NCBI GenBank assembly: GCA_035582835.1
Contig: JAYKAV010000112.1
Span: forward strand, 4,298,586-4,362,585
Length of the DNA: 64,000 nucleotides
Origin: Phoebastria nigripes
Lineage: Eukaryota; Chordata; Aves; Procellariiformes; Diomedeidae
Reading direction: 5' to 3'
Part shown: in pieces, positions 24,473-63,500 of the stretch
Layout of the letters: every line of letters starts with the position of its first letter
Numbering within the stretch: position 1 is the first letter of the stretch
The notes under the pieces: model-generated
The model's input: the letters and a program-made list of their open reading frames with translations, nothing else
What the model was told of the DNA's origin: nothing
Databases searched by the model: none
Program-made: the position numbers and the translations under genes

Positions 24473-25010
24473 TCAGTTAAGCAAGAAATCTGGCTCCCGA
24501 TAACCAAAGAGTTTAAAATCACCTTCAAACCGCGTGTAGAGGCGTCTTATGTCTCTCTTGCTAATTCCCGAAAAATACCGCTCTACTTTTGTTTTGTTGT
24601 ACACTGTTATGCCTGGTGGAATCGTGGGGTATGATACCAGATGGTCTATGCCAGCTGCTTTCAAGATATACGGAGCATCGTCCTCCAGGGTTTCATGGTG
24701 TCCGATCACACTATACGTGATTTCACAGGGGGCGCAAAGTTCCACATACGTTACCCAATGAATGATGTGGTCACCAAACTGAACATCCAGCCATCGGTGG
24801 TTAGGGTCACCCAGATAGCGCACAAAATCCTCAAACTGCAGCCCTTTGGTCTCTGTGCGATTCCTTCTATATTTACGAATGATGCCAGGAGCAATTTCAT
24901 GCCGGTACCAAGGTTCAAAGCGAGGATTGTGCACAAACTTGTCTTTAAATGCAGAAATGAGTCTTTCAAATGGATCTCTAACAATAAAAAACTTGAAGTA
25001 TAAATTCAGT
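24473..25010 (-). CDS. CHST10: CHST10 last coding exon (3'-phosphate motif to stop)
   Basis: The exon starts after CTCTGTTTAG and runs 538 nt to TGA at 24475-24473. It encodes residues 180-358 and holds half of the protein: the 3'-phosphate-binding motif [12 protein letters not shown] (residues 188-199), the sequons NRT (230) and NKT (318), and the conserved C-terminal domain ending [11 protein letters not shown]. The open frame is uninterrupted. The 3' UTR lies at lower coordinates. Confidence 0.97.
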
Positions 25011-28000
25011 CTAAACAGAGGAAGGAAAAAAATTAAGAAATTAAATAATTAGGGAAAGTGTTTAGCAAAGCGTTTAGCAAAGTGTTTAAAGTATGTTTAG
25101 CAAAGACTTACAACATGTACATAAACTCTGACCACAGACACAGCAATATGAATCTTACACCACTTGCATAGTCTATCAATATTATAATCAATAAGACTGG
25201 AAATACAATTTCTATCTTTTTACTAACAATTTTTGTATACAGTACAAAGTGGAAATAGTTCATCCCAGTTTTCACATTTTATTCAAACTGGAGGAGCTTA
25301 GTTTATCTCAATCCATATAAACAGTAGATGAAAGATGCTGAAAAGATGCTGAAAGCTCTGAGTCAAAGATATTTTTAATGCCATGTGATCAAGCTCAAGA
25401 AGCAAAAACATACATAAATAAAGACATGGAAAAAGTGGCTTGGTGCAGCTAAATGCAGAGGGTTGCATTTTTCACTGACAGGTAGTTAGACAAATCACTG
25501 CTGAAGTAAAAAAAAAATCTGGTATTTTATTTGATGTTTTGTCATGCTTTCAATAATGGCCAAGAACATTATTTTCATGAGACCACAGTTTTCAACAGAA
25601 TTTCACATTTTGTTGTGATACCACCGAACTGTAATATTCTGTAGTCAGAGATTATCTGTAGGAGGACTAAATTGAAAACAAAGTTTATTTCAGTAAATAG
25701 CTGAGAAAGGAGATTTAGAGCCCAATCCTCACTGAAGTAAGTGGATGGACTCTTCCCAGCCTCAAGAGGCACTTGGATCAGTCTTCAGGTTCTCCTGACT
25801 TACTCCTAACCAGGCAGGGCTAGAGGTCAGCAAACTAGATCAACAGATCCACACCATCCCTCTCTCTACACCTAATCTCTCTGATAATTTATTTCAGAAT
25901 TCCCAACCAAACCCATGTTACGCATCTCCAGCACAACTTCTGTGGTGGGCTGACTGCAACAACCCAAATCATAATGGCATTCAACTTCAAATACCCTAGC
26001 TATGGCTCAACCTCCAGGTGAACAGTTACTTTCTACNCAGGGCTGTTCACAGTGAGGGAGAATGGATCCATGTTCTCAAGAATGTGGTGACAGTATTTTC
26101 TCTTGCACACTATCAACACAATCAAGTGACCCCATTTCCACAGGCTCAGCTGTGATAAATGTATTTGTACCGCTGTATAAATTTGTACCACCAAGGTACC
26201 AACAAACCTTGGACTGAGCTCTACTGACAGCTGACACCACAGGTATAAGGGGCTGACTCTTCAGAATGGCTTAATACACACAAAACGCACACAAGCACAA
26301 GCTTACAAGTGTCCGCTGGCATCTTATGTCCTGTTCTCTACAAGGATTATATATGGCATAGGCTCTAGTAGAGATGAGAGCAGACACAGTCAAAAATCTA
26401 GCCAAATTAATTTAGAAGGCTCTACTGCAGAGAAGTATTTTTTCTGCTCTGAAAAGCACCCAAACAGGAAGATAAAGTGGTTCAGCTGAATGGACAATAC
26501 TCTCAGGCTAAGGACCACTAATGTTTTAAACCTATCCAGTTCAATCCCAGTAAGTAAATCTGCTGGCAATGACAATCTTGTATAGTAAATCTTACTGCCT
26601 ACATGTAAGACATCGGGGTGGACCTTCCAAGTAAACCTTCCTTTCTGCAGGTCAACTATGTAACAACCAGGTATGCATTGAACTACAGAAACCCTATATC
26701 CAGAGGGAGCTGCCTGGCTCACCTAACTGTATCACCAATTACACTGGTGTTCTCCTTCAAAGCCAGTAGGGAGGTAGTCACAGCAACATCTGTGAAGATA
26801 GCAGAATAGTGCCATAATACAAGTGCCGGAGCAGAAACCCCATTGTCCTCAACTCCAGATGTACTCTTCAACTGTACTCTTGATTGTCCACAACACCAAC
26901 TCCAAACCCCTCCCATACCCCTGGGGAAGCCACCTCTTACCGTTTTTTAATTTCAGAGTCACTGAAGGAGGACAAGCGTGGAAGGCCATTCTTCTCATGA
27001 TCATGTACAATGTTTTCTGGGATCTCTTCTATGGAAGAAAATGCTCCTAGACAAATCAAAAAGAGAGCAAGTGAATCTTTCAAGGGAAAAAAAAAGTGAG
27101 CACAAGCAAGCATGTGTGCCTTTGGCTGACAGCTTTTTGTTTTATCTTTCTCTTTTCTGTATTTTTAGCATTTACAGTTACTATGTTTAAAACCGTTAAA
27201 TGATGAGAGATTCTGATTGCGAAGCTGAAAACTGTTAAAATTCTTTAGGGTATGTGACATCAAGGTCCAAGACCAAATGGCCTCAAAACTCTCAGAAAAG
27301 CACATTACACAAATTTCATCAGCAATTATGTGTAAACCTATAACTCCCCACCTCAGTGTCCCCATTCCCTTTCCCTCTGCCCACACATACAAATGGAGGA
27401 AGACTAAGGATTAACTCCAAAGAAGGAACCAGCTTTTTGGCTGCGTTTCTACCACCAACAAAAAATAAATGCTGTGGGCTGCTTTTGGAACTGCTTCAAC
27501 ACAAAAGCACTTTGCTGTCAGGATCCATGAAGTTATTTTAATGACTATGCTGTGCTGAAACAAAAATTCCAATCATACAATACTACACAGATTAAAAAGC
27601 ACTAAAATTAACAATAGAAAGCCTCCAGATACTCATTTTTGCAAGCACATAAGCTGACAAGAAAAATAATGTCACTAAATTCTGAGCCATTTATTTTAAG
27701 ATCCTGATCCTGGAAGTTTCTAGGACCTTGAGAAATATCTCATGTGGGCCCCTTGGACTTTAGGAGTAAGCCTTCACACAACCGCATCATTTCAGAGTAC
27801 CAACCTGCAACAAGAACAGGGTGCTACGAAACAAGCTCTTTAGGTAAAAGCCTGTTCCAGAACTGCAGTGAATAATCCACACCATTTAGCGTCTCAGTTT
27901 TCTAATTTCTTTTTTTTTTTTTTTTTGGGTGGTGGTGGTTTTATTTTATTAATTTCAGTTTTCTAATTATATTTTTTGGTACTCTTGGTGAATTACATGT

Positions 28001-38700: not shown

Positions 38701-40991
38701 TGTATTGGATTTCTAAGAGTTTGTGTTAAATGACATGGGGAAAGCAGTTTCCATGTGCTCTGACCTGAAAAGCAGTTAGCGCACACAGGACCCTGCTGCC
38801 AGATCCTGTGCTCCAGGGATAGGAGAACAACATTTCAGCCAAAGACACCTATGAACAGTACACTACTTACCTCAAGGACTGGACTCTGAGACCAGGGAGG
38901 GGACACAATTGCAGTCACATCCCTAACAACAACCACTATTACCCTTCAATACATCGAAGCTGAGAGAAAAATATTAAGCAGTTTTGTCTACTCCTTTTTT
39001 TTTTTTTTTTTTATGCGCACAGCAAATCTGCAACCATACTCATTGATGTGAGAGTCTTGTCAGAGGATTTATCATAACATAATTACAATGGCTGGCACTC
39101 TTACTCACTTCTAGCATCCTAAACAAAACTAAATCTGTATCAGCAGCTCATTACCTATCTCAAGAAGCAGAACCGTTCAAAATTATATACAGGAGTAACT
39201 CAACCATTATGCTCACTTAAATGCAATGACCAGTAACATTTTTAAAATAATGTGTTTATGTTGTTTCCCTTTCTCTAGCTTCTTCTTTAATATTTTTATC
39301 GTTTTCACATAGGGTAGTCGCACTTCCTGTTATATCTCTGATCTTACTGCATTTCTGTTGCCTCTCCTGTTACTTATTTTCTAGTGAATACATATACTAG
39401 CTTCTGTTTTTTCTCTTTAATAGTTTCCTTCAGCTTCCAAATGTGTCTTTTACTTCTTGCCTAAAACATTTTTTCTTTACAAGTAGAAAAAACAAGAAAG
39501 CTGTTGAAAGTTTAGTCTGTTTTCTCACAATGAAACATGCAGGGATTTTTCAGGTTGCTGCTTCTCCCTCTTATTGCAATTCTATACTTTTTAGGAGCAC
39601 AAGATCCCCCAAACCCCTCTCTCCATCCATTCCTCTGTCCTTCCCTCCCTGGGCTACTTACCCCAAAGACAAACGGTCACATAACCCTCAGATCAGCCAG
39701 ATGCCAGTTTTGCATGAGCAAAAATGGGATTGCAAACGCACACACAAACATGAACCAAAGATCAGGACACAAAGCGTGGCAGGCTTGACCCATGCGAGTC
39801 AAGGGCTTTACCCTGCAAGTAACACGTTACCTGAAAAAACCACTCGTACTTTGGGGAAGACTGCTGCTCTTCATGTGAACGACAGGACAAAGCGTGGAAG
39901 ATTTAAACAACATTAAAACTCAGTGCACAGCCCCTGCTCTGCAGCTTATGCTGCTTGGATAGAGGCTCCTTGGCAGGACAGTCCCTGCACGCATCGTGAA
40001 TGACAGCGGCACGCCGGTAGTCTCAAACTACCAACTGCTTGCCCATCAGCACATGACTAATGATGTAATTTGAAATGGAACTGGTAACGAAGGCCAAACA
40101 ACAGCCAGCCGGGATACCTAATCCATTTTCATCAAGGCCTCCTTTGTGTTATCTTAAAGTCAAGAGATCTGGACAATTTATTCCACTGTTTAAAAAAATT
40201 TTGGACTAAAATCTATCACACACTCCTTTGGTAAGTTGTGTGGTGCTGCTAAATCTTATAACGTACATTATAACGGGCATTTCTGAAAGCTGGCTCTTCC
40301 TAAGGCTTTCCTCCACCCCGACGGCATTAAGAGACCTATCGTCTCTGCTACTGCTGGAGAGCAGAGTCCCCCCCCGAGCACAATTCACCTGTCAGCAGGA
40401 AGAAAACCAACCACCGGAGCAGCAGCCCCTGCAACAACTGCGTAACCCACCTCAGCCCGGGGCAGGCTCTGCGTGCGCCAGCTCCACGGCCCCCAGACTG
40501 GGAACGGGACCTGCCTCCCCAGCCAGCACACCCGTGCCCTGTTTGACAGACACCAGGTCCGACTCCACAAGCACCCCATGCTCTTCGCAGCTGGGAACGG
40601 CAGCTCCTTCCCCAGCATCGGGGTTTCCCGGGGGCTCCATTCACTGCCCAACAGAGGGGTCCCCGCCAGGAAGACCGGACACGGCCGTGGTCTGACCGGC
40701 ACGGGATGAGCCGAGGCAAGGCGCACCCACAGCCCACAAGGCGGGCTCCTGGGCTAAACAGCCGTAAACTTTTCCCGTTCCCGAGAAGGAAGCAGGGCGG
40801 GCTTCCCCTCACCCCCGGCAGGTAGAGACAACAGACGCCCGCAGCGCTCGCTGGCTTCCCCGCCCGACCGGCCGGAGGAGCCTCTCCCCGGGGCTGCCGG
40901 CTGCCAGGCCTCCCCCCGCAGCCCCGGCCCGGCCCGGCCCCGCCCCGCCCCGGGGTACCGGGCCTCCCTCGCAGCGCCCCCTCCCCGGCTT

Positions 40992-40994
40992 ACC
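40992..40994 (-). other. CHST10: Candidate splice donor of the untranslated first exon of CHST10
   Basis: On the minus strand, GGCCG|GTAAGC gives a good donor with its last exon base at 40994. It would splice to the acceptor before 35702. Other usable donors lie in the island (for example ACAG|GTGAAT near 40388), so this is only the best-looking option. Confidence 0.35.
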
Positions 40995-41193
40995 GGCCCT
41001 CCAGCGCCGCTCCCCGCAGCCTCGGCCCCCCGCGGCGGGGCGCCTCTCCTGCCGGGGGCCCGCCTCACTCGGCGGCGCGGCCGGCCCGCTCAGGCGACCC
41101 CGGCTGCTGCTGCTGCGGCGGCTGCTGCATCCCCCCCCGCCCGGCTGCAGGCGGCGGCGGCAACGGCGGCACCTCCCCGCCCTCGCTCAGCCC

Positions 41194-41214
41194 CTGCTGC
41201 TGCTGCTGCTGCTG
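41194..41214. repeat. (CTG)7 / (CAG)7 trinucleotide tract in the CpG island
   Basis: Seven uninterrupted CTG units run directly into CCG units. A second impure CTG/CGG cluster lies at about 41102-41128. On the CHST10 strand they read CAG and CGG. They may lie in the 5' UTR or just upstream of it. Confidence 0.85.
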
Positions 41215-41655
41215 CCGCCGCCCGGCCCTGCCGCCGCCGCCTCCATTTCCTCCCGCCGCGGGCAGGCCTCGGCCGCGCCCCCAGCCCCGCCGCCGGGAAG
41301 GAAAGGAAGGTGAAGGCCGCCGCGGGGACGGCTCAGCTCGGCCCCGAGGAGACGCAGCGCCGCGCCCGGCCGCCCGGAGGCGGGAGGGAGGGATGGAGGG
41401 CGGGCGGGCTACGCTCCCCGCCTCTCCCTGCCCCGCCTCTCCTCACCCCGGCGGGAGCGGGGCGCCTCAGCCGGCGGGCCGGGCGCGACCCCCGGCGAGG
41501 AGGGCGGCGCTGCCTCTGGTCGGCCTCAGCCCCCACCTCGTTGCCCAGCCCCGGCCCCCGTCTCCCCGCCGCGGCCCCCCGGTGGCTTCCAGTTTTCGCA
41601 GGGTGGCCGGTGCTTCTCGGCGGGGCCCGCTGCCAGCGCTCAGCGGGACTCATGT

Positions 41656-42251
41656 ATAACACGTGTATAGGTGTGTTTCTTTTTCTTTTACTGTTAAAAA
41701 TCATAGGTCCCTAACGCTCGTGTTTCAAAAAAAGAAGGCTGAAGATACGACTTTTGTGCACCTGCAGGACTCCAATACCCACAAATCCCGTCAAAACCAG
41801 GTGNTGGTGATGGGTCTATTTTTAACAGCTATTTAAACAACTCCTTTTGGGGATGTATTGCGGTGCATAGCCGTAGGGATGTGTTACAGTGCTGAGGTGG
41901 TGTTTCCTAAACTCTGCAGAAATGAAGCTCAAACGGTGGAGCAGGGCCCTCTGGCCGGTGCCTGGAGGAAGGGGCAACGGCGGAGCAAAGCCACCCCATT
42001 TTAAAGCTCATTGAACACTGAGGCGCTGGGGACACATCTTCTGGTATGAAATCAGGTGAGGCAACATAAAGGAGGGGCTTTATGACCTGACCCTGAAAGA
42101 TGTGCTCCTGTTACCTGACCCAGCACAAAAACCGTCCTGTAGTATGTCCTCTTGTGTCTGGTCACCAGAATTAATTTGCCCACTGGGAACTTGTAAATTG
42201 AGTGGGGGGCACAGGGAAATCCCATCTTTCAGGCGAAGAATCAGAATAAAT
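41656..42251. other. Intergenic, nothing recognised
   Basis: Between the CpG island edge and the CR1 copy there is ordinary sequence without a recognisable exon. Confidence 0.5.
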
Positions 42252-42982
42252 GATCCCCATGCAACGCTATGGGCTTGGGGAAGAGTGGCTGGAAAGCTGC
42301 CTGTCGGAAAAGGACCTGGGGGTGCTGGTTGACAGCCAGCTGAATATGAGCCGGCAGTGTGCCCAGGTGGCCAAGAAGGCCAACGGCATCCTGGCCTGTA
42401 TCAGAAATAGTGTGGCCAGTAGGAGTAGGGGAGTGATCGTGCCCCTGTGCTCGGCCCTGGTGAGGCCACACCTCGAACGCTGTGTTCTGTTTTGGGCCCC
42501 TCACTACAAGAAGGACATTGAGGTGCTGGAGCGTGTCCAGAGAAGGGCAACGAAGCTGGTGAAGGGTCTGGAGAACAAGTCTTATGAGGAGCGGCTGAGG
42601 GAACTGGGACTGTTTAGTCTAGAGAAGAGGAGGCTGAGGGGAGACCTTATCACGCTCTACAACTACCTGAAAGGAGGTTGTAGCGAGGTGGGTGTCGGTC
42701 TTTTCTCCCAAGTAACTAGCGATAGGATGAGAGGAAATGGCCTCAAGTTGCGCCAGGGGATGTTTAGATTGGACCTTAGGAAAAATTTCTTTACTGAAAG
42801 AGTGGTTAAACATTGGACCAGGCTGCCCAGGGAAGTGGTGGAATCACCATCCCTGGAAGTATTTAAAAGACGTGTAGATGAGGCGCTTAGGGACATGGTT
42901 TAGTGGGCATGGTGGTGTTGGGTTGATGGTTGGACTCGATGATCTTAGAGGTCTTTTCCAACCTTAATGATTCTATGATTCT
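42252..42982 (+). mobile_element. CR1 LINE 3' fragment, young, with intact C-terminal frame
   Basis: An open frame of 217 codons (42250-42903) encodes the C-terminal end of a CR1 reverse transcriptase, with landmarks [48 protein letters not shown] and [20 protein letters not shown]. It stops at TAG and is followed by the CR1 3' UTR and the terminal ATTCTATGATTCT. The frame is still open, so the copy is fairly recent. It is strongly 5'-truncated (a full CR1 is about 4.5 kb) and cannot move. Confidence 0.95.
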
Positions 42983-45900
42983 AAACAGCATCCTACAGAC
43001 AGTCTTGTTGATCAGTCCAAACTAGTCATACAGGCATGCTGCATGAGAAGCCTTTGCTTCCAGCCTTCATCTCTTCTCCCATCTCTGCACCTTCTTTCCA
43101 AGTATGTTCTGTCCTTGGAAAGACCCACACAAACAGGATAATTTTGAGCAGAGTGATGGGAGAGGTGGGAGTCCCAAAATCCACAGAAGGAAGAAAACAT
43201 GACTGAGAAATCTAAGTGGATTTTTAGGCTTTGGGGAATGATCCCTGAATCCCAGGCCAGGTGGTCTGATGTCCAGGCTACACATGGCTGGCCCCCTCTG
43301 CAGCAGACTGTTGCAGTTCATGCTACACAGCACTTCACCCTGGTTTTCCTATGAGGTCTTGTGTGGAGAACATAAGACAAAATTGCCAATTATGGGATTG
43401 TGTGATTAAGTAAATACCTAAATAACGTCCAGTCCCTTGACGTTGATTTGCCAGAGAAGACTTGAACCCTAATAAAGTCATGCCCTAAAGCCTAATAAAG
43501 TCTGTGAGGAGCACAGGGAAGCTTGCTGCAGGATCAGGGCCAACAGTTCAAGACAGGACAAATTCAGAAGAGACAGAATTGTAGTAGAAGTTTCTGTCTG
43601 TCTCTGTGCGTCAAGTTACCAATGAATGAAAATAATCGAATGGAAGTAGAGTTTAAAATGCTTTCACAGCTAAAAAATACATTGTAAATTTATTAGAGTC
43701 CAAATCAAAACTGATACAAGCAAGTTTAAACTAGTGCCTCTTCTAGAACAAGGGAGAAGAAACATAGGTTAGAACAGGCAACCTTAACTTACTCACCTCA
43801 TGTACTTCCCAACCTCTCATTTTATGGTCTGCATCACTGTATGGAGCCTGAGTCCGAAACTCACTGACACACACGCACATGTAACTTGCATGGTTTCCAG
43901 TCCTGAGTTGTAGGTAGTAGGACTCCGTGTGCAACATGAGATGCCTCATTGAATGACCAAGAGGCAGCACTCCACCCTGTTAGAGGAGGATTTAGTCCCT
44001 CTGATCCATGCCTTTCCAGACTTGACTACCGTGGTATGCTATGCTGGAGCCTGACCAAGGAAGCCCAAGGAAGCCTAAGGACGCTGTGTTGGTGCAAACA
44101 CTGTGGCCAGCCTATGGAGCAGAACAGGCTAATGCAAATGCGTTAACAACGGTGCCTTCAGTGCTACACTGACAGCTGCTAGCCACCGGTGAAGCAGCAG
44201 AAACATAGATCTCATTGTGAACCAGTGGCCAAAAAGCAGTAATCAGAAACCCAAGTTCTCTGCCTGACTCTATGTTTGTTTGTACCAGCACCCTGGGACA
44301 CCGCATCCTTGTGCCTCCCTTTCTCTACCTGTGAAGTAGAAATGGTGATAGTGATAGTTACCTTGTTGGCAAAGCATATTGGAAATCTGTGGCTGTCACC
44401 AGTTTGAGTCTTGCAGAGGCTAGAAAGTTGCTTCTTTCTTCAGGCTTCAGAGTGATGACTACAATTGCAGCCACGCACAGATTTATTAATAAGCAGTCTC
44501 CAGTTGTGGAACCAATTCCTGCCAGATTATCAGGCTCAGCCCAAGTATTTTAACCTTTCAAGTATGTTGTTACTCACATGTATAATAATTAATCCAGTAT
44601 AAAAGGAACCAATTTTCCAAACTAAGCACAGTTAATAAGCTTTGTTGTCAGTAATTGGGCCTGAAAGTGTCTGATGAAGTTGAAGAATGTGTTGCATAGG
44701 CAACTGTACAGTTGGATTATACAGTTGCTAGTTCAGGCCAACAGGATTCTTGCTACTAATAATGCTAAACTGTAGTGGGGTTTAGAGCTTTAAATAGGCA
44801 GCAAAATCAACATTCGAGTCTGGGTTCTTTTTAATAAGAGAATTTTTACAGTGCCAGAGCACTGTAAAGGACAATTGTGCTGGTGAAAAGTCACCCTCCT
44901 CTCTCTGGGATGTTCTAGAGTGACTGCGGCTTCCTCAGAGATATGCCGCTGAAACCAATGGAAGTGACGCACCCGTTTTTCTCTAAGGACGTGGGCCTGA
45001 ACTGGGAAGTTTCATCTTAATAACATGTTCAATGTTTATGCCATTAAAAAAGGTTTTAAAGTCCTAATAACTCTTGTATATCTTTATTCCAGGTTTGACG
45101 TTTCTCCCAGAAGAGTCTTACTTGCAAAAGACAAACACACCAGGAGGACCAGGTGTGACACTGGACACCTGAGCTGCAAGAGCACATTCAAGCATTTTAA
45201 GAAATTATTATCTGTCAGTGGCAGGCTGTCTTGACTGCCCTCGGTATGAGTTAATTCTAAATAGCATTTAAGCATACCGGAATGTTTAAATGAGCCCCTG
45301 TCTTGGACAAGATAAGTAATCAGCCATACTGCAGTTTGCATTTGAACACATCCAGCCTAATCACACTGAAGGCACCCTCATTTTCCTTGGCCTTCCAAGC
45401 TCATTCTATTCAGCAGAAGCATAGGCTTGCCCATATTGTTAAACTTATGCTATATTTATTTTTTGCTCTTTGTTGTTATTTCAGGTTTTAATCCAGTGCC
45501 AATTACTAGGATTAGTCTTGGTAGCCCTTTTAGTCGTGCTTTGCCTCCATAAGAGCTGACCTTTCACCTGTTCAGCATCAAGTACTCAGGAAGAATAAAT
45601 CTTATTTAAATCAGCAGGAACACATGCTTTTCCTAGTACAGTGCCATTATTAGTGAAATCACCGACCTGCTTCATAGCTGCATTTCTGAGGCGTGACTGA
45701 TCACTGAAGGAGATCTCTTGTGTACAAGTACCTTGCTTTGCAACTGGTCAGACCTGGCACCTCTGGCACTTAGTACATTTATTAGGGTGTGATGTTCATC
45801 ACCAGATTCTGTCTCTTTCTGGAACTTGAGTAAGCTAGTTTAAATGTGGATCTGGTTGATATAAGATAGAACATACAGAATACCTTGTGGCCTCTACAGT

Positions 45901-55527: not shown

Positions 55528-56475
55528 CATAGAATCATTAAGGTTGGAAAAGACCTCTAAGATCATCAAGTCCAACTGTCAACCCAACACCACCATGCCC
55601 ACTAAACCATGTCCCTAAGCGCCTCATCTACANGTCTTTTAAATACTTCCAGGGATGGTGANTCNACCACTTCCCTGGGCAGCCTGGTCCAATGTTTAAC
55701 CACTCTTTCAGTAAAGAAATTTTTCCTAANGTCCAATCNAAACNTCCCNTGGCGCAACTTGAGGCCATTTCCTCTNNTNCTATCGCTAGTTNCTTGNNAG
55801 AANAGACCNACACCCACCTCGCTACAACCTCCTTTCAGGTAGTTGTAGAGCGTGATAAGGTCTCCCCTCAGCCTCCTCTTCTCTAGACTAAACAGTCCCA
55901 GTTCCCTCAGCCGCTCCTCATAAGACTTGTTCTCCAGACCCTTCACCAGCTTCGTTGCCCTTCTCTGGACACGCTCCAGCACCTCAATGTCCTTCTTGTA
56001 GTGAGGGGCCCAAAACAGAACACAGTGTTCAAGGTGTGGCCTCACCAGGGCCGAGCACAGGGGCACGATGACTTCCCTACTCCTGCTGGCCACACCATTT
56101 CTGATAAGGGCCAGGATGCCATTGGCCTTCTTGGCCACCTGGGCACACTGCTGGCTCATATTCAGCCGGCTGTCAACCAGCACCCCCAGNTCCTTTTCCG
56201 ACAGGCAGCTTTCCAGCCACTCTTCCCCAAGCCTGTAGCGTTGCATGAGGTTGTTGTGGCCAAAGTGCAGGACCCGGCACTTGGCCTTGTTGAACCTCCT
56301 ACAGTTGGCCTCAGCCCATCGATCCAGCCTGTCCAGGTCCCTCTGCAGAGCCTTCCTACCCTCGAGCAGATCGACACTCCTGCCCAACTTGGTGTTGTCT
56401 GCAAACTTACTGAGGGAGCACTCAACCCCCTCATCCAGATCGTTGATAAAGATATTGAACAAGACCATTGAAATG
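55528..56475 (-). mobile_element. CR1 LINE 3' fragment, same subfamily as the 42-kb copy, opposite orientation
   Basis: The minus-strand frame 56543-55602 (313 codons) covers more of the reverse transcriptase than the 42-kb copy. It includes the catalytic region, where the usual aspartate pair reads FADN, and continues through [26 protein letters not shown] and [20 protein letters not shown]. The 3' end at 55528 reads ATTCTATGATT on the minus strand. Fifteen N bases fall within 55633-55809, and one more at 56190. The frame is otherwise unbroken, so it is a recent but 5'-truncated insertion. Confidence 0.95.
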
Positions 56476-56937
56476 AGGTGAGCTCTCACCATTTGGACTG
56501 CTTGTCTGTGCTGGAAAGGTAAATGCATGTTAACTAAAACCACAGCAAACCAGCCTAGTATTCAGCATAAACAGCCACTGTCATATTTAATACAAGATGA
56601 GCAGGCTTTATGGCAGGTTTGCCTAATAAATACCCTCCAACTTCTGTAGCTTTTCTCATCTTTCCAAATGGATCGTGGGTTAGGTATAGAAAGCCCTCAG
56701 AGCAGGATAAGGCTTTATACCAAGCACTGCCGAGCTGCAGAGGGTGAGAGGTGTGTGGGACCAGAAGCAGCCAGCTGGGATGCACACAGGAACTGCACAA
56801 TGGTGATGTTTTGCTGATGCTGTCCTCGCTGTCTGCGATTACCCACTGATTTCATTGCAGAGATCATTTACAAAAAGGAAGCCAGCCCTTCACCCTTATG
56901 CCTGTTGAAGCCCAATTTTCATCTTATTCTTCATTTA

Positions 56938-60453: not shown

Positions 60454-60520
60454 ATGCCCCCGCCCGCCCTGCCCTGGCTGCTCGCCGCCTGCTGCCTCTG
60501 CGCCCTCCCGCGGGGCTCAG
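60454..60520 (+). CDS. NMS: NMS coding exon 1 (signal peptide)
   Basis: It starts with ATG in CCCCGCC-ATG-C context and ends TCAG|GTACGT. It encodes 22 residues plus one base. The hydrophobic core LPWLLAACCLCAL is a typical signal peptide, and cleavage is expected close to the SG|FPQP junction. The TATA-like box 42-50 bp upstream leaves little room for another start. Confidence 0.88.
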
Positions 60521-63500
60521 GTACGTCCCGCCCGCAGCACGGGGAGAGGAGGAGGGGGGAACACAAGCGAACCCCCAAACCTTGGGAAGGGCCGTCTCCC
60601 ATCGAGGGGCGCCGTCGGGGCCAGGCTCCGCGGCATCTCCGCACAGCCCTCTCCCCCCCGTGTCCCCGCAGGGTTCCCCCAGCCTTTCTCGCGCTACAGG
60701 GACGGCGCGGACCTGCCCAAAAGCCAGGTACGTCCGTCTTCGCCTTCCCCGCCAGCCCCTCTGAAAGGGGTGCGCGGCGGAGGGGTAGGGCAGAACCGGT
60801 CCAGCCCGGGCTGGCACGGGGAAACGAGACTCGCCCATGGCGGGGAAATCCGGTAGGAAATTGGCGACTGGCTGGCAACACATTATATGAAATCCCTGGC
60901 GTGGGTGGTAAAGAGAGTCGGGAGGCTGAGCCCCTTTGCTGCCCGGGGAGGTAGATGGGACAGGAACGGGCAGGGGTGTGATGTGCAGCTGTGTGCAGAA
61001 TAGGATACCTGGGTCACCAAAATCCAGGTGGGCTAATGACCAGCTAGTCCTGACTCCCTGAGCTAAAATGCAGGTCCCAAGGAATGAAAGCCCCACTGTT
61101 AATGTCTAATCTTTACTTTTTAAAGCAACTGGCACTATGTTTCAGTCAGTGGATGGAACTGTCTAATCAACCCCAGGTAAATGGACTTTGGTAATGTGTT
61201 TGATCTGCTGGGACTCTCTTTCAGAGATACTAATTGCCCCTTGTAACCCTCAGCATCAGTAGCTGCAGGTGGCAGAGCCTCCTCCAGAGAGCCAGCGGCT
61301 CTGGAGAGCGGAGCAAGTTTGCTGGTGTATGCGTTCTCCTCTCTGCAGAGCTAACACAGACCTAGAGAAAGAAAAAAAATGTGCTTTTCTTCCCATCACA
61401 GTGGTAGCTAGCACTGAAGCAAGAAGCGCTAGTCAGTGTTGTAGGAGTTACAGGCAGGGTCCTGTCTGGTCCCGGCTCTGCAGTGGTGGGTGGACAGTGC
61501 TCAGAGGAGAGGGGAGCGAGGGAGAGGCTTCACAGCTCGTTTCTGCTGTGGTGTCTCTGGCCCAGAGCTTGCAAACACTTTAGACTACTGAGTAACTTTG
61601 AAAGACCAGCCCCACTGCATTTGATACCGAGCCCAAGGGTCATTTTCAAAGGGGAGAGAAAAATCTTTGTAGGATCAGCAATTATCTGGAAACTTTCAGC
61701 CTTTTGTGTTGATTTTTTTTTTTTTTTGAAATCTTTCATTTTTTTAAACCAAGACTGGTGGAAAATAGTTCCCAGAGCCAGTTGTTCTGGTGTCTTACAT
61801 CTTACTTTCTTTGGAGCTGTAGCTATTTCTTGTCTAATGTGATTGCATGCATCAGCAAATCCTTGTCCTGTGGCAGTGAGTATGGGGCAGTGTATTTCAG
61901 TATATGGTTAAAGATTACAGTACTGATTGACTGAAATGCTTATAGATGAAATTGAGTGTAGATTAAATATGCCAAAACACAAACCTATTTGTGGAACACC
62001 TAGCATAGGAAGATGTGTTTTAAATATAAGAGGCTGATTTAGGTCTCTCTATAGCACAAGACTATATTGTAGTCACTAGTAGTATCGTGTGTATTCTCCT
62101 CATACAAAATACTAGTTTTTCAGCTCGTAATAGCTTCAGTAGGTCTTGCCCTGCTCTGAGTGGTTTTAGTGGAACCGCGTTCAGTTTACATTGCGCTGGG
62201 ACCAGAGTCAAGCTCGTTCTCTGTCAAACCATGTATACCACATCCTCTCAGTAAATGTATTAAAGTACTGTTTGGTTTTGCAGATCTCCAGCACTGTTTT
62301 GGATCTTTGTTATTCCATATTCAACAGCATGCATACAAATGAGGTAAGGTGTAATTGCTTCTTTTACTTCAAAGCATCCCCTCCCTCCTTAAACTTAAAA
62401 AGCAACCCCTCCAAAACCAACTTCTTGACATTTCTCTCCAAACAATAATGTATAATCTAATATCATCATGGTTTAGGAGACGTAGGAGAGTATATAAAAG
62501 ATTTTTTTCTTCTCCTTAGTAGTTCGCATGTAATTCTTAACTCCATTAAATTATATATCAAATTGCTGTTTTTCACCAGTTCAGAGCTCAAGAACCAAAA
62601 CATCCACTTACAGCTGGGGTCAGTATTTTAACTTGACCCTCACTTTTGAATAATACAGGGTTAAATATGCTAAAAATACATGCAACTTTGGATCAACAGC
62701 ATACTTAAGCTCATGCTGAACATGGAGGCATATGAGTTGCTTTACTGATTTAAATACTCTACTTGAGCTTGTTTTTCTGTATTTCTGAGTCAGATCCAAA
62801 AGATTAAGTTGAGGAGTTATTGAGTATAGCTCTTCCTCATTGCTGCAGTCATATTAGGACCTAGCTGAATGTCAGTTCTGCTTTATATCACTTTTTTATT
62901 ATCACCAGTTTATTGAGAGTCTTCCCCATAAAATTCACTCAGCCCCTGGGTATGTTAAAAAAGCCAATTTACTTGTGGAGTCTGAGTCTTCTGTTTTTTC
63001 AAATCATGAGTAGAGCCTTCAAGACAATAATAGAAAGTATTTTGACATGTATTTCAATATGTCTTCTTGCCAGTCTTTAGCTTATTATAATTCCAAGCAT
63101 GCTTTCCTAAAGCAGCCATAAAACTCTACAACACAGAAGGTGATTGTATAAAAAATTCTAGCATTTCAGTCTTAAATGTCTAATAAATGTTTTGAGTTCA
63201 GTATTGACTCCTATACTTCTGCAGCTTACCTAATGAGGGGACATCCAGAATCATCAGGTAACTTTGAATGAAGCCCTCTTCCTGGTTACTATTTTAGTTA
63301 CGAACTTTGCAAAAAATTCACCCTCTGTTATGCATCCTCAAGATTGGGAGCTGGATCTTGTACAATATCCNTTCAAGAGATATGACTAATATCAGCTGCA
63401 TATCTGCAATATGATTTCCTGGTGTGGTCTGATTAAGGGGTAGATCAAATCTAAATGTGAGATACAGAAAAAAGAGCTATACAAAAAGTACAAATTTTTA

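What the first reader, a model, noticed from the sequence alone, without database searches (positions are those of the whole stretch)
62284..62343. Bird NMS keeps an NMU-like fourth exon that mammalian NMS appears to lack
The exon is exactly 20 codons, phase 0-0, with good splice sites. It encodes a Leu/Cys/Ile-Phe pattern (VLDLCYSIFNSM) that lines up with NMU (ALEELCFMIMGM), also a 20-residue segment in the same position. From memory, human and mouse NMS join the SRQPK-type end directly to the short segment before the FLFHYS motif, with no such block. This suggests NMS and NMU arose by duplication of one gene with this exon, and that mammals lost or stopped splicing it. The exon may encode part of an uncharacterised propeptide.
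Basis: partly seen in the sequence, partly recalled or inferred. Interest (0 to 1): 0.8.

Follow-up and report, generated by a model that had tools for sequence, protein, structure and literature searches.

The report
Bird neuromedin S: reciprocal exon loss
This is a real, ancient exon of the brain hormone gene neuromedin S that birds share with reptiles, amphibians and lungfish; people appear to lack it, while birds have lost the neighbouring hormone block that people keep.

Summary
The exon is real: 62284-62343 (+), 60 bp, phase 0-0, AG/GT splice sites, ISSTVLDLCYSIFNSMHTNE. It is in 112 of 115 listed bird NMS entries. It is not a bird novelty: 56 of 59 crocodilian, turtle, squamate, amphibian and lungfish entries carry it; three snake isoform models skip it. 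The same genome's NMU gene has the matching 60-bp exon (2 of 20,000 permutations score as high). So exon 4 is ancestral to the NMU/NMS pair. Its absence in mammals rests on a recalled human sequence plus published lengths and exon counts; no mammalian NMS was retrieved.

Birds lack the block that normally follows exon 4: exons 5-7, encoding NSRP and two cleavage sites. None of 115 bird entries has FHYS. Only an exon-6 relic remains, 62565-62618 (0 of 1,000 shuffles as high), with its 3' splice site gone; no exon 7 was found in the intron or genome. Human-type and bird NMS thus look like reciprocal exon losses from one ancestral plan. Birds should make a 17-residue NMS from a single KK site, after a two-cysteine helical pro-region. 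Processing, disulfide and splicing are inferred.

The parts
60454..60520 (+). NMS coding exon 1 (signal peptide MPPPALPWLLAACCLCALPRGS-)
   Evidence: donor GTACGT; joins in frame; matches bird NMS models; signal-peptide reading is by eye
60672..60727 (+). NMS exon 2 (GFPQPFSRYRDGADLPKSQ), 56 bp
   Evidence: AG/GT flanks; 78.5% pairwise identity over 40 bird entries
61126..61176 (+). NMS exon 3 (QLALCFSQWMELSNQPQ), 51 bp, first conserved Cys
   Evidence: AG/GT flanks; Cys in 138 of 138 entries where exon 3 is recognised before exon 4 by L..x..[QE]W
62284..62343 (+). NMS exon 4 (ISSTVLDLCYSIFNSMHTNE), 60 bp, second conserved Cys; the finding
   Evidence: Cys in 166 of 168 entries with exon 4; homologous to NMU exon 4 at G000:C1741:985862-985921
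62475..62501 (+). possible relic of exon 5 (RRRRRVYKR against ENNQEIYKR); not significant
   Evidence: best match for the lizard exon 5, in the right order and strand, but 222 of 1,000 shuffles score as high; the alligator form prefers other places
62565..62618 (+). decayed relic of exon 6, the N-terminal part of NSRP (AVFHQFRAQEPKHPLTAG against FLFHYSRAQDPTYPLKAG); no AG before its old start, gtcagt after its end
   Evidence: BLOSUM score 54, 0 of 1,000 dinucleotide shuffles as high, best shuffle 34; flanks; a Strigops automated model (P0029) reads the same DNA in another frame

Best explanation
The 60-bp exon is coding exon 4 of the bird neuromedin S gene and the direct counterpart of exon 4 of neuromedin U. 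It was present in the NMU/NMS ancestor. It encodes the second helix, with a conserved Cys, of a small pro-region; exon 3 encodes the first helix and first Cys (Cys shown by alignment, helices by model; the disulfide is inferred). In the ancestral NMS plan, exon 4 is followed by exons 5-7: a KR cleavage site, the NSRP peptide FLFHYS..., and the RRMKR site. Birds kept exon 4 and lost exons 5-7. Human-type NMS kept exons 5-7 and lost or stopped using exon 4. In birds the only dibasic site usually left between exon 4 and the receptor-binding end is KK in exon 8, so the likely product is a 17-residue amidated peptide DSHGTLGRPFFLFRPRN-NH2, with the two-Cys pro-region as the rest of the precursor (inferred). 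Where exon 8 is skipped, no dibasic site remains there.
For: Exon anatomy and splice sites. Exon 4 in 112 of 115 bird entries and 56 of 59 non-bird entries; the other three non-bird ones are snake isoform models that skip it (P0153, P0157, P0172). Own-genome NMU has exon 4 (60 bp), exon 5 (30 bp), exon 6 and exon 7 with splice sites; NMU exon 4 against 59 distinct NMS exon-4 peptides: 2 of 20,000 permutations as high. FHYS in 0 of 115 bird entries, 55 of which run on past exon 4. Exon-6 relic: 0 of 1,000 shuffles; exon 7: 435, 842 and 324 of 1,000 shuffles as high for lizard, turtle and crocodile forms; the same test finds the paralogous exon 7 in the NMU locus (score 64, 0 of 300). Genome-wide, lizard exons 6-7 match only NMU exon 7 (one candidate scored). 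One N in 62344-65138. Crocodilians keep exon 6 (P0039) and exon 7 (P0130). Cys: exon 3 in 138 of 138, exon 4 in 166 of 168, the two others Emydura models with Trp. Models: helices at exons 3 and 4. Of 44 bird entries that reach PFFLFR, 33 have KK before it; 11 have no dibasic site, 6 by clean exon-8 skipping and 5 as read-through models.
Against: No RNA data: the sequences are database entries, by their names mostly predicted models. No mammalian NMS was retrieved, so the mammalian half rests on recall and published counts. Reviews say human NMS also has 10 exons, which fits loss of exon 4 only if the ancestral NMS had 11 coding exons; bird exon 11 was sought by a simple pattern and not found. 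The exon-6 relic is still an open frame of 18 codons, so one genome alone does not prove it is dead. In rat NMS the corresponding KK is not cut (recalled), so KK cleavage in birds is unproven. Model confidence is low overall (mean pLDDT 58.4 and 62.0). My permutation set for exon 4 was picked with a pattern that asks for Cys or Trp at position 9.
Confidence: 0.8

Rival explanations
1. Exon 4 is an ancestral cassette exon that is alternatively spliced widely; mammals still carry it in the genome but always skip it, so nothing has been lost.
For: Three snake isoform models skip exon 4 and make the exon 3 to exon 5 junction of recalled human NMS (P0153, P0157, P0172). NMS exons 3, 4, 8 and 9 here and NMU exons 4-8 are multiples of three, so skipping keeps the frame.
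Against: Among 115 bird entries only three lack exon 4, all pheasant-family read-through models, one of which (P0036) runs from an extended exon 3 to exon 8. Mammalian introns could not be searched here.
Confidence: 0.35
2. Birds still splice a short NSRP-like exon from the 62565-62618 region, using the CAG inside it as a new 3' splice site, so NSRP is altered rather than lost.
For: The relic is open over 18 codons and tttttcaccag stands inside it, in frame with FRAQEPKHPLTAG and a gtcagt donor.
Against: None of 115 bird entries contains RAQ or FHYS. The one model that touches this DNA, P0029 of Strigops, reads it in another frame. The KR site before NSRP and the RRMKR site after it are not found at significance.
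Confidence: 0.07
3. The bird exon 4 arose independently, or the NMU resemblance is chance.
For: Only Ser2, Leu8 and Cys9 are identical between the bird NMS and bird NMU exon-4 peptides (by eye).
Against: Same length, phase and place; permutation test 2 of 20,000; exon present in lungfish, amphibians and the sauropsid groups retrieved.
Confidence: 0.02

Closest known systems
NMS of crocodilians, turtles, squamates and amphibians (e.g. P0130, P0163, P0147, P0137)
   Same: Same exon 1-4 plan, same Cys pair, same PFFLFRPRN-GR end
   Different: They keep exons 5-6 with FLFHYS and, in some models of each group but in none of the 18 frog entries, exon 7 with a dibasic site before NMS; birds lack these
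Human NMS precursor (recalled; UniProt Q5H8A3 is the accession named in PMC8283259 and PMC3514618)
   Same: Exon 2-3 peptides, TKK, GRPFFLFRPRNGR
   Different: Appears to join exon 3 to exon 5 without exon 4; keeps NSRP. Not retrieved here
NMU of the same bird genome (G000:C1741)
   Same: Exon 4 of 60 bp with LEELCF; two Cys; exon order
   Different: Keeps exons 5-7 with FLFHYSKTH... (NURP region); exon 8 is one 54-bp exon where NMS has two (36 and 42 bp)

Membership tests
Neuromedin S gene | C-terminal FFLFRPRN followed by GR amidation/cleavage signal | tested here: met
   exons at extended coordinates 65617-65658 and 66648-66677, DSHGTLGRPFFLFR + PRNGRTIEGS
Neuromedin S gene | Is NMS rather than NMU | tested here: met
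   most of the 120 listed hits are named neuromedin-S, a few UniRef entries 'Neuromedin U' or uncharacterized; a separate NMU gene is in the genome; no tree was built
Neuromedin S gene | Neighbour CHST10 (recalled for human 2q11.2) | tested here: inconclusive
   a Sulfotransfer_2 open frame lies at 24476-25048 (-), E 9.7e-43; which member of the family was not tested
NSRP-bearing NMS precursor (four cleavage sites, PMC5585327) | first site (KR) then FLFHYS... | tested here: not met
   0 of 115 bird entries with FHYS; relic only at 62565-62618
NSRP-bearing NMS precursor (four cleavage sites, PMC5585327) | second/third sites (RRMKR) before NMS | tested here: not met
   no significant exon 7 in 62344-65138 and only NMU exon 7 genome-wide
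NMU/NMS exon-4 type pro-region | 20-codon phase 0-0 exon with central Cys after a Cys-bearing exon 3 | tested here: met
NMU/NMS exon-4 type pro-region | Disulfide between the two Cys | not testable with these tools
   helices predicted; no coordinates or biochemistry seen
Mammalian-type NMS (no exon 4) | exon 3 joined to exon 5 in mammals | tested here: inconclusive
   no mammalian sequence retrieved; recalled human NMS fits published lengths

The most novel reading that the evidence does not exclude
Birds have rebuilt NMS as a minimal precursor: a two-Cys helical hairpin (exons 3-4) attached directly to the receptor-binding peptide through a single KK site, and exon-8 skipping (6 of 44 bird models) removes even that site, so that birds switch by splicing between a 17-residue NMS and a hairpin-tethered NMS of about 70-80 residues, with no NSRP at all.
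Probability: 0.12. Interest if true: 0.65.

Novelty: new variant of a known kind. Interest (0 to 1): 0.5.

Why it matters
NSRP and NURP are reported to act without NMUR1 or NMUR2 (PMC8283259, abstract passage). Birds look like a natural NSRP knock-out that still has the NURP exons of NMU, and human-type NMS like a natural exon-4 knock-out. That makes two open questions testable: what NSRP does, and whether the two-Cys pro-region is needed to sort or fold the precursor. It also suggests that mammalian-type NMS peptides may be longer than what birds make, which matters if such peptides are used in chick experiments (which peptide was used in the chick studies cited in PMC5089991 I did not see).

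Tried and rejected
Pfam on the 78-aa precursor gave only DUF6419 at E 0.071, below its cut-off, dropped. PDB sequence search gave nothing better than E 0.22. Foldseek of the newt model against PDB: 64 matches at E<=10, none at E<=0.001, no fold named. Text search for human NMS letters in papers: 0 papers. Paper searches for bird NMS exon structure or NSRP; judged by titles and abstract beginnings, no listed paper describes exon 4 of bird NMS or loss of NSRP. Three lists were cut (15 of 230, 12 of 15, 10 of 181), most subscription papers are not held, and PMC545815 (Mori 2005) is not held, so prior description is not excluded. The zebra finch prohormone survey has 0 uses of 'NMS' in the main text (passages). 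The cichlid survey lists both NMS and NMU in a fish (passages); fish NMS was not examined. Papers opened (PMC8283259, PMC3514618, PMC5585327, PMC5089991, PMC2873334, PMC3499383, PMC4992253, PMC8074168) were seen only as passages. Exon 5 relic: not significant. Exon 11: simple pattern search found nothing. Pfam NMU gave three own-genome matches over the cut-off; only the strongest, C1741, was followed, the other two (L006, L007) were merely looked at. Ten plus ten long open frames of 342 listed were scanned with Pfam; one gave a family. Per-exon conservation for exon 4 failed through a wrong pattern and was redone. The pattern missed P0113 (bird) and P0129, P0130, P0160, P0163, P0164, P0173 (non-bird); counts given are. 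A Cys count (137 of 137) used a pattern that already demanded the exon-3 Cys; it is replaced. The human NSRP/NURP identity I computed is 15 of 33, whereas PMC5585327 gives 42.4%. On checking, exon-8 skipping proved clean in 6, not 11, models, so I lowered the novel-case probability from 0.15 to 0.12.

Full report
WHAT IS THERE. The window is G000:C3:4298586-4362585 (+) of an unnamed 1.2 Gb genome; its best protein relatives are bird NMS entries. Four coding exons of NMS are in the window: 60454-60520, 60672-60727, 61126-61176 and 62284-62343. The fourth is the finding: 60 bp, no stop, acceptor ...ggttttgcag, donor gtaagg. The rest of the gene lies past the window end; in window numbering carried on into L002-L004 it has exon 8 at 65139-65174 (ESQIAAAKFTKK), exon 9 at 65617-65658 (DSHGTLGRPFFLFR) and exon 10 from 66648 (PRNGRTIEGS), each after an AG, exons 8 and 9 before a GT. 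I number exons by the ancestral plan below, so birds have 1-4 and 8 onward.

IS EXON 4 REAL. One phmmer search with the 78-aa precursor returned 122 proteins, 120 listed: 115 bird and 5 alligator. 112 of 115 bird entries hold the exon-4 peptide, in 32 distinct forms with 91.6% mean pairwise identity; the three without are pheasant-family models that read through the exon-3 donor. Exon 2 averages 78.5% over 40 entries, exon 3 90.5% over 103, exon 8 87.2% over 38, exon 9 93.0% over 44, each over the entries that a pattern recognised. The sample is biased towards entries sharing exon 1-4 words, and by their names the entries are mostly predicted models, so this supports but does not prove splicing.

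OUTSIDE BIRDS. Two further searches with the exon 5-7 region of alligator and lizard NMS gave 34 and 41 proteins; with the five alligator ones these make 59 distinct non-bird entries: crocodilians, turtles, squamates, frogs, newts, a caecilian and a lungfish. 56 of 59 have exon 4, or the part of it that their model covers (sequences); the three without are isoform models of two snakes (P0153, P0172, P0157), which join ...QPQ or ...QSQ straight to ENNQEL.KR. The ancestral plan read off these models is: 1 signal; 2; 3 RLALCFSQW...QPQ; 4 VSSSVMDLCNSMFNSLQIDE; 5 ENNQEIYKR; 6 FLFHYSRAQDPTYPLKAG; 7 SFPVHPLMRLAPKLSERRMKRFLDP; 8 ESQIAAAEFTKK; 9 D....LGRPFFLFR; 10 PRNGRTV.... None of the 18 frog entries has exon 7 (the one HPL found by pattern, in P0140, lies in its signal region). 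These searches used exon 5-7 letters, so presence of exon 6 in them is by selection; presence of exon 4 is not.

NMU IN THE SAME GENOME. Pfam NMU gives three matches over its cut-off; the strongest is G000:C1741:993795-993848. Upstream exons found with the recalled human NMU and a lizard NMS and read with their flanks include exon 3 (IDDACSAYLSTDSHPQ), exon 4 at 985862-985921 (ASRALEELCFLVMGFLQKPQ, 60 bp, ttag/gtaaca), exon 5 (GLDEKDNTKR, 30 bp, the size that PMC5585327 gives for mammalian NMU exon 5), exon 6 (FLFHYSKTHDSGNSGIM, 51 bp, again the published size) and exon 7 (SSVLHPLLQLVPQLNERRLKRYKVD). Against 59 distinct NMS exon-4 peptides, NMU exon 4 of this bird is matched or beaten by 2 of 20,000 permutations of itself, recalled human NMU exon 4 by 1 of 20,000. 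Same place, length, phase and Cys: one ancestral exon.

WHAT BIRDS LOST. None of 115 bird entries has FHYS, MKR or RAQ; 55 continue more than three residues past exon 4. Neither exon 5-7 search returned a bird (0 of 34, 0 of 41). In the 2,795-bp intron 62344-65138, with a single N, the lizard exon-6 peptide scores 54 at 62565-62618 (AVFHQFRAQEPKHPLTAG), best of 1,000 dinucleotide shuffles 34; turtle, newt and alligator forms give 0 of 1,000 too, at the same place, the alligator form narrowly (40 against a best shuffle of 37). Its old start is preceded by ...atcaaatt, without AG. A Strigops (kakapo) automated model, P0029, contains SRTKTSTYSWG, the same DNA in another frame, so the relic is not private to this genome. 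Exon 7 scores no better than shuffles (435, 842, 324 of 1,000 as high), although the same lizard exon 7 finds the paralogous NMU exon 7 (score 64, 0 of 300 shuffles). Genome-wide, lizard exons 6-7 match only NMU exon 7, E 0.95, the one candidate scored; that search is not sensitive enough to list the exon-6 relic. Exon 5 is undecided (222 of 1,000). Crocodilians keep exon 6 (P0039) and exon 7 (P0130), and kiwi, ostrich and tinamou entries (P0055, P0073, P0120, P0030, P0041) lack FHYS, so the loss most likely lies on the bird stem (inference).

MAMMALS. The recalled human NMS is 153 aa with a 34-residue NSRP, the recalled NMU 174 aa with a 33-residue NURP, as published (PMC8283259 and PMC5585327, passages). 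In it ...LSRQPK is followed by DNQDIYKR, the exon 3 to exon 5 junction. Reviews give human NMS 10 exons; that fits an 11-exon ancestor minus exon 4, if the last coding exon is separate, which I did not establish. A mouse variant 8 aa shorter (145 against 153) would fit skipping of an 8-codon exon 5. These are consistency arguments.

MECHANISM. Shown: where exon 3 is recognised before exon 4 its Cys is there in 138 of 138 entries, and the exon-4 Cys in 166 of 168 entries with exon 4; the two others are models of one turtle, Emydura, with Trp. Predicted: helices over exon 3 and exon 4 in the bird model (39-53, 57-76; block pLDDT 76-83 for residues 41-70; mean 58.4) and in the newt model (46-59, 64-80, then 85-103 over exon 5 and the start of exon 6; block pLDDT 79-89 for residues 41-100; mean 62.0). 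Inferred: a Cys-bridged helical hairpin that helps fold or sort the precursor, with exon 5-6 as a third helix in the ancestor. Birds lost the third helix, human-type NMS the second. Processing: of 44 bird models reaching PFFLFR, 33 have KK before it; 11 have no dibasic site between exon 4 and there, 6 of them by joining exon 4 to exon 9 and 5 as read-through models. A KK cut gives DSHGTLGRPFFLFRPRN-amide, 17 residues; a frog entry is named nms-17 (P0140), in line with KK cutting there; that Bombina NMS is a 17-mer is recalled.

VERDICT. Observation confirmed, interpretation partly supported. The finding is better described as reciprocal exon loss in NMS: exon 4 in the human line, exons 5-7 in birds. 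New variant of a known gene, useful because it supplies natural deletions of two poorly understood precursor parts.

Noticed in passing
window 24476-25048 (-): Open frame with a Sulfotransfer_2 domain (E 9.7e-43), perhaps the CHST10-type gene that neighbours NMS in mammals (neighbourhood recalled).
   Followed up: partly
window 40001-43000: GC-rich stretch (0.61, 0.69, 0.51 per kb) with long open frames on both strands and no Pfam match in those tested; perhaps a CpG island or promoter of a neighbouring gene.
   Followed up: partly
window 55605-56561 (-): Open frame of 319 codons without Pfam match; 16 of the window's 49 N lie in 55600-56500. Perhaps an interspersed repeat.
   Followed up: no
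P0086, P0097, P0101, P0107, P0109, P0110, P0112, P0113, P0114, P0115, P0120: Eleven bird NMS models skip exon 3, removing the first Cys but keeping exon 4.
   Followed up: partly
18 frog entries among P0131-P0152: None has exon 7 (dibasic site before NMS), while all keep exon 4; an independent partial loss or consistent skipping.
   Followed up: partly
P0129, P0170 (geckos): The KK before the NMS core reads MK in two geckos whose models also lack exon 7.
   Followed up: no
L006 1501-1548 (-) (G000:C36:119517-119564): Second-best Pfam NMU match in the genome (23.1 bits, E 0.144); read by eye on the reverse strand it begins like NMU exon 8 (EELQGP..SQSRG) and soon meets a stop. Chance or a decayed copy; not tested.
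   Followed up: no
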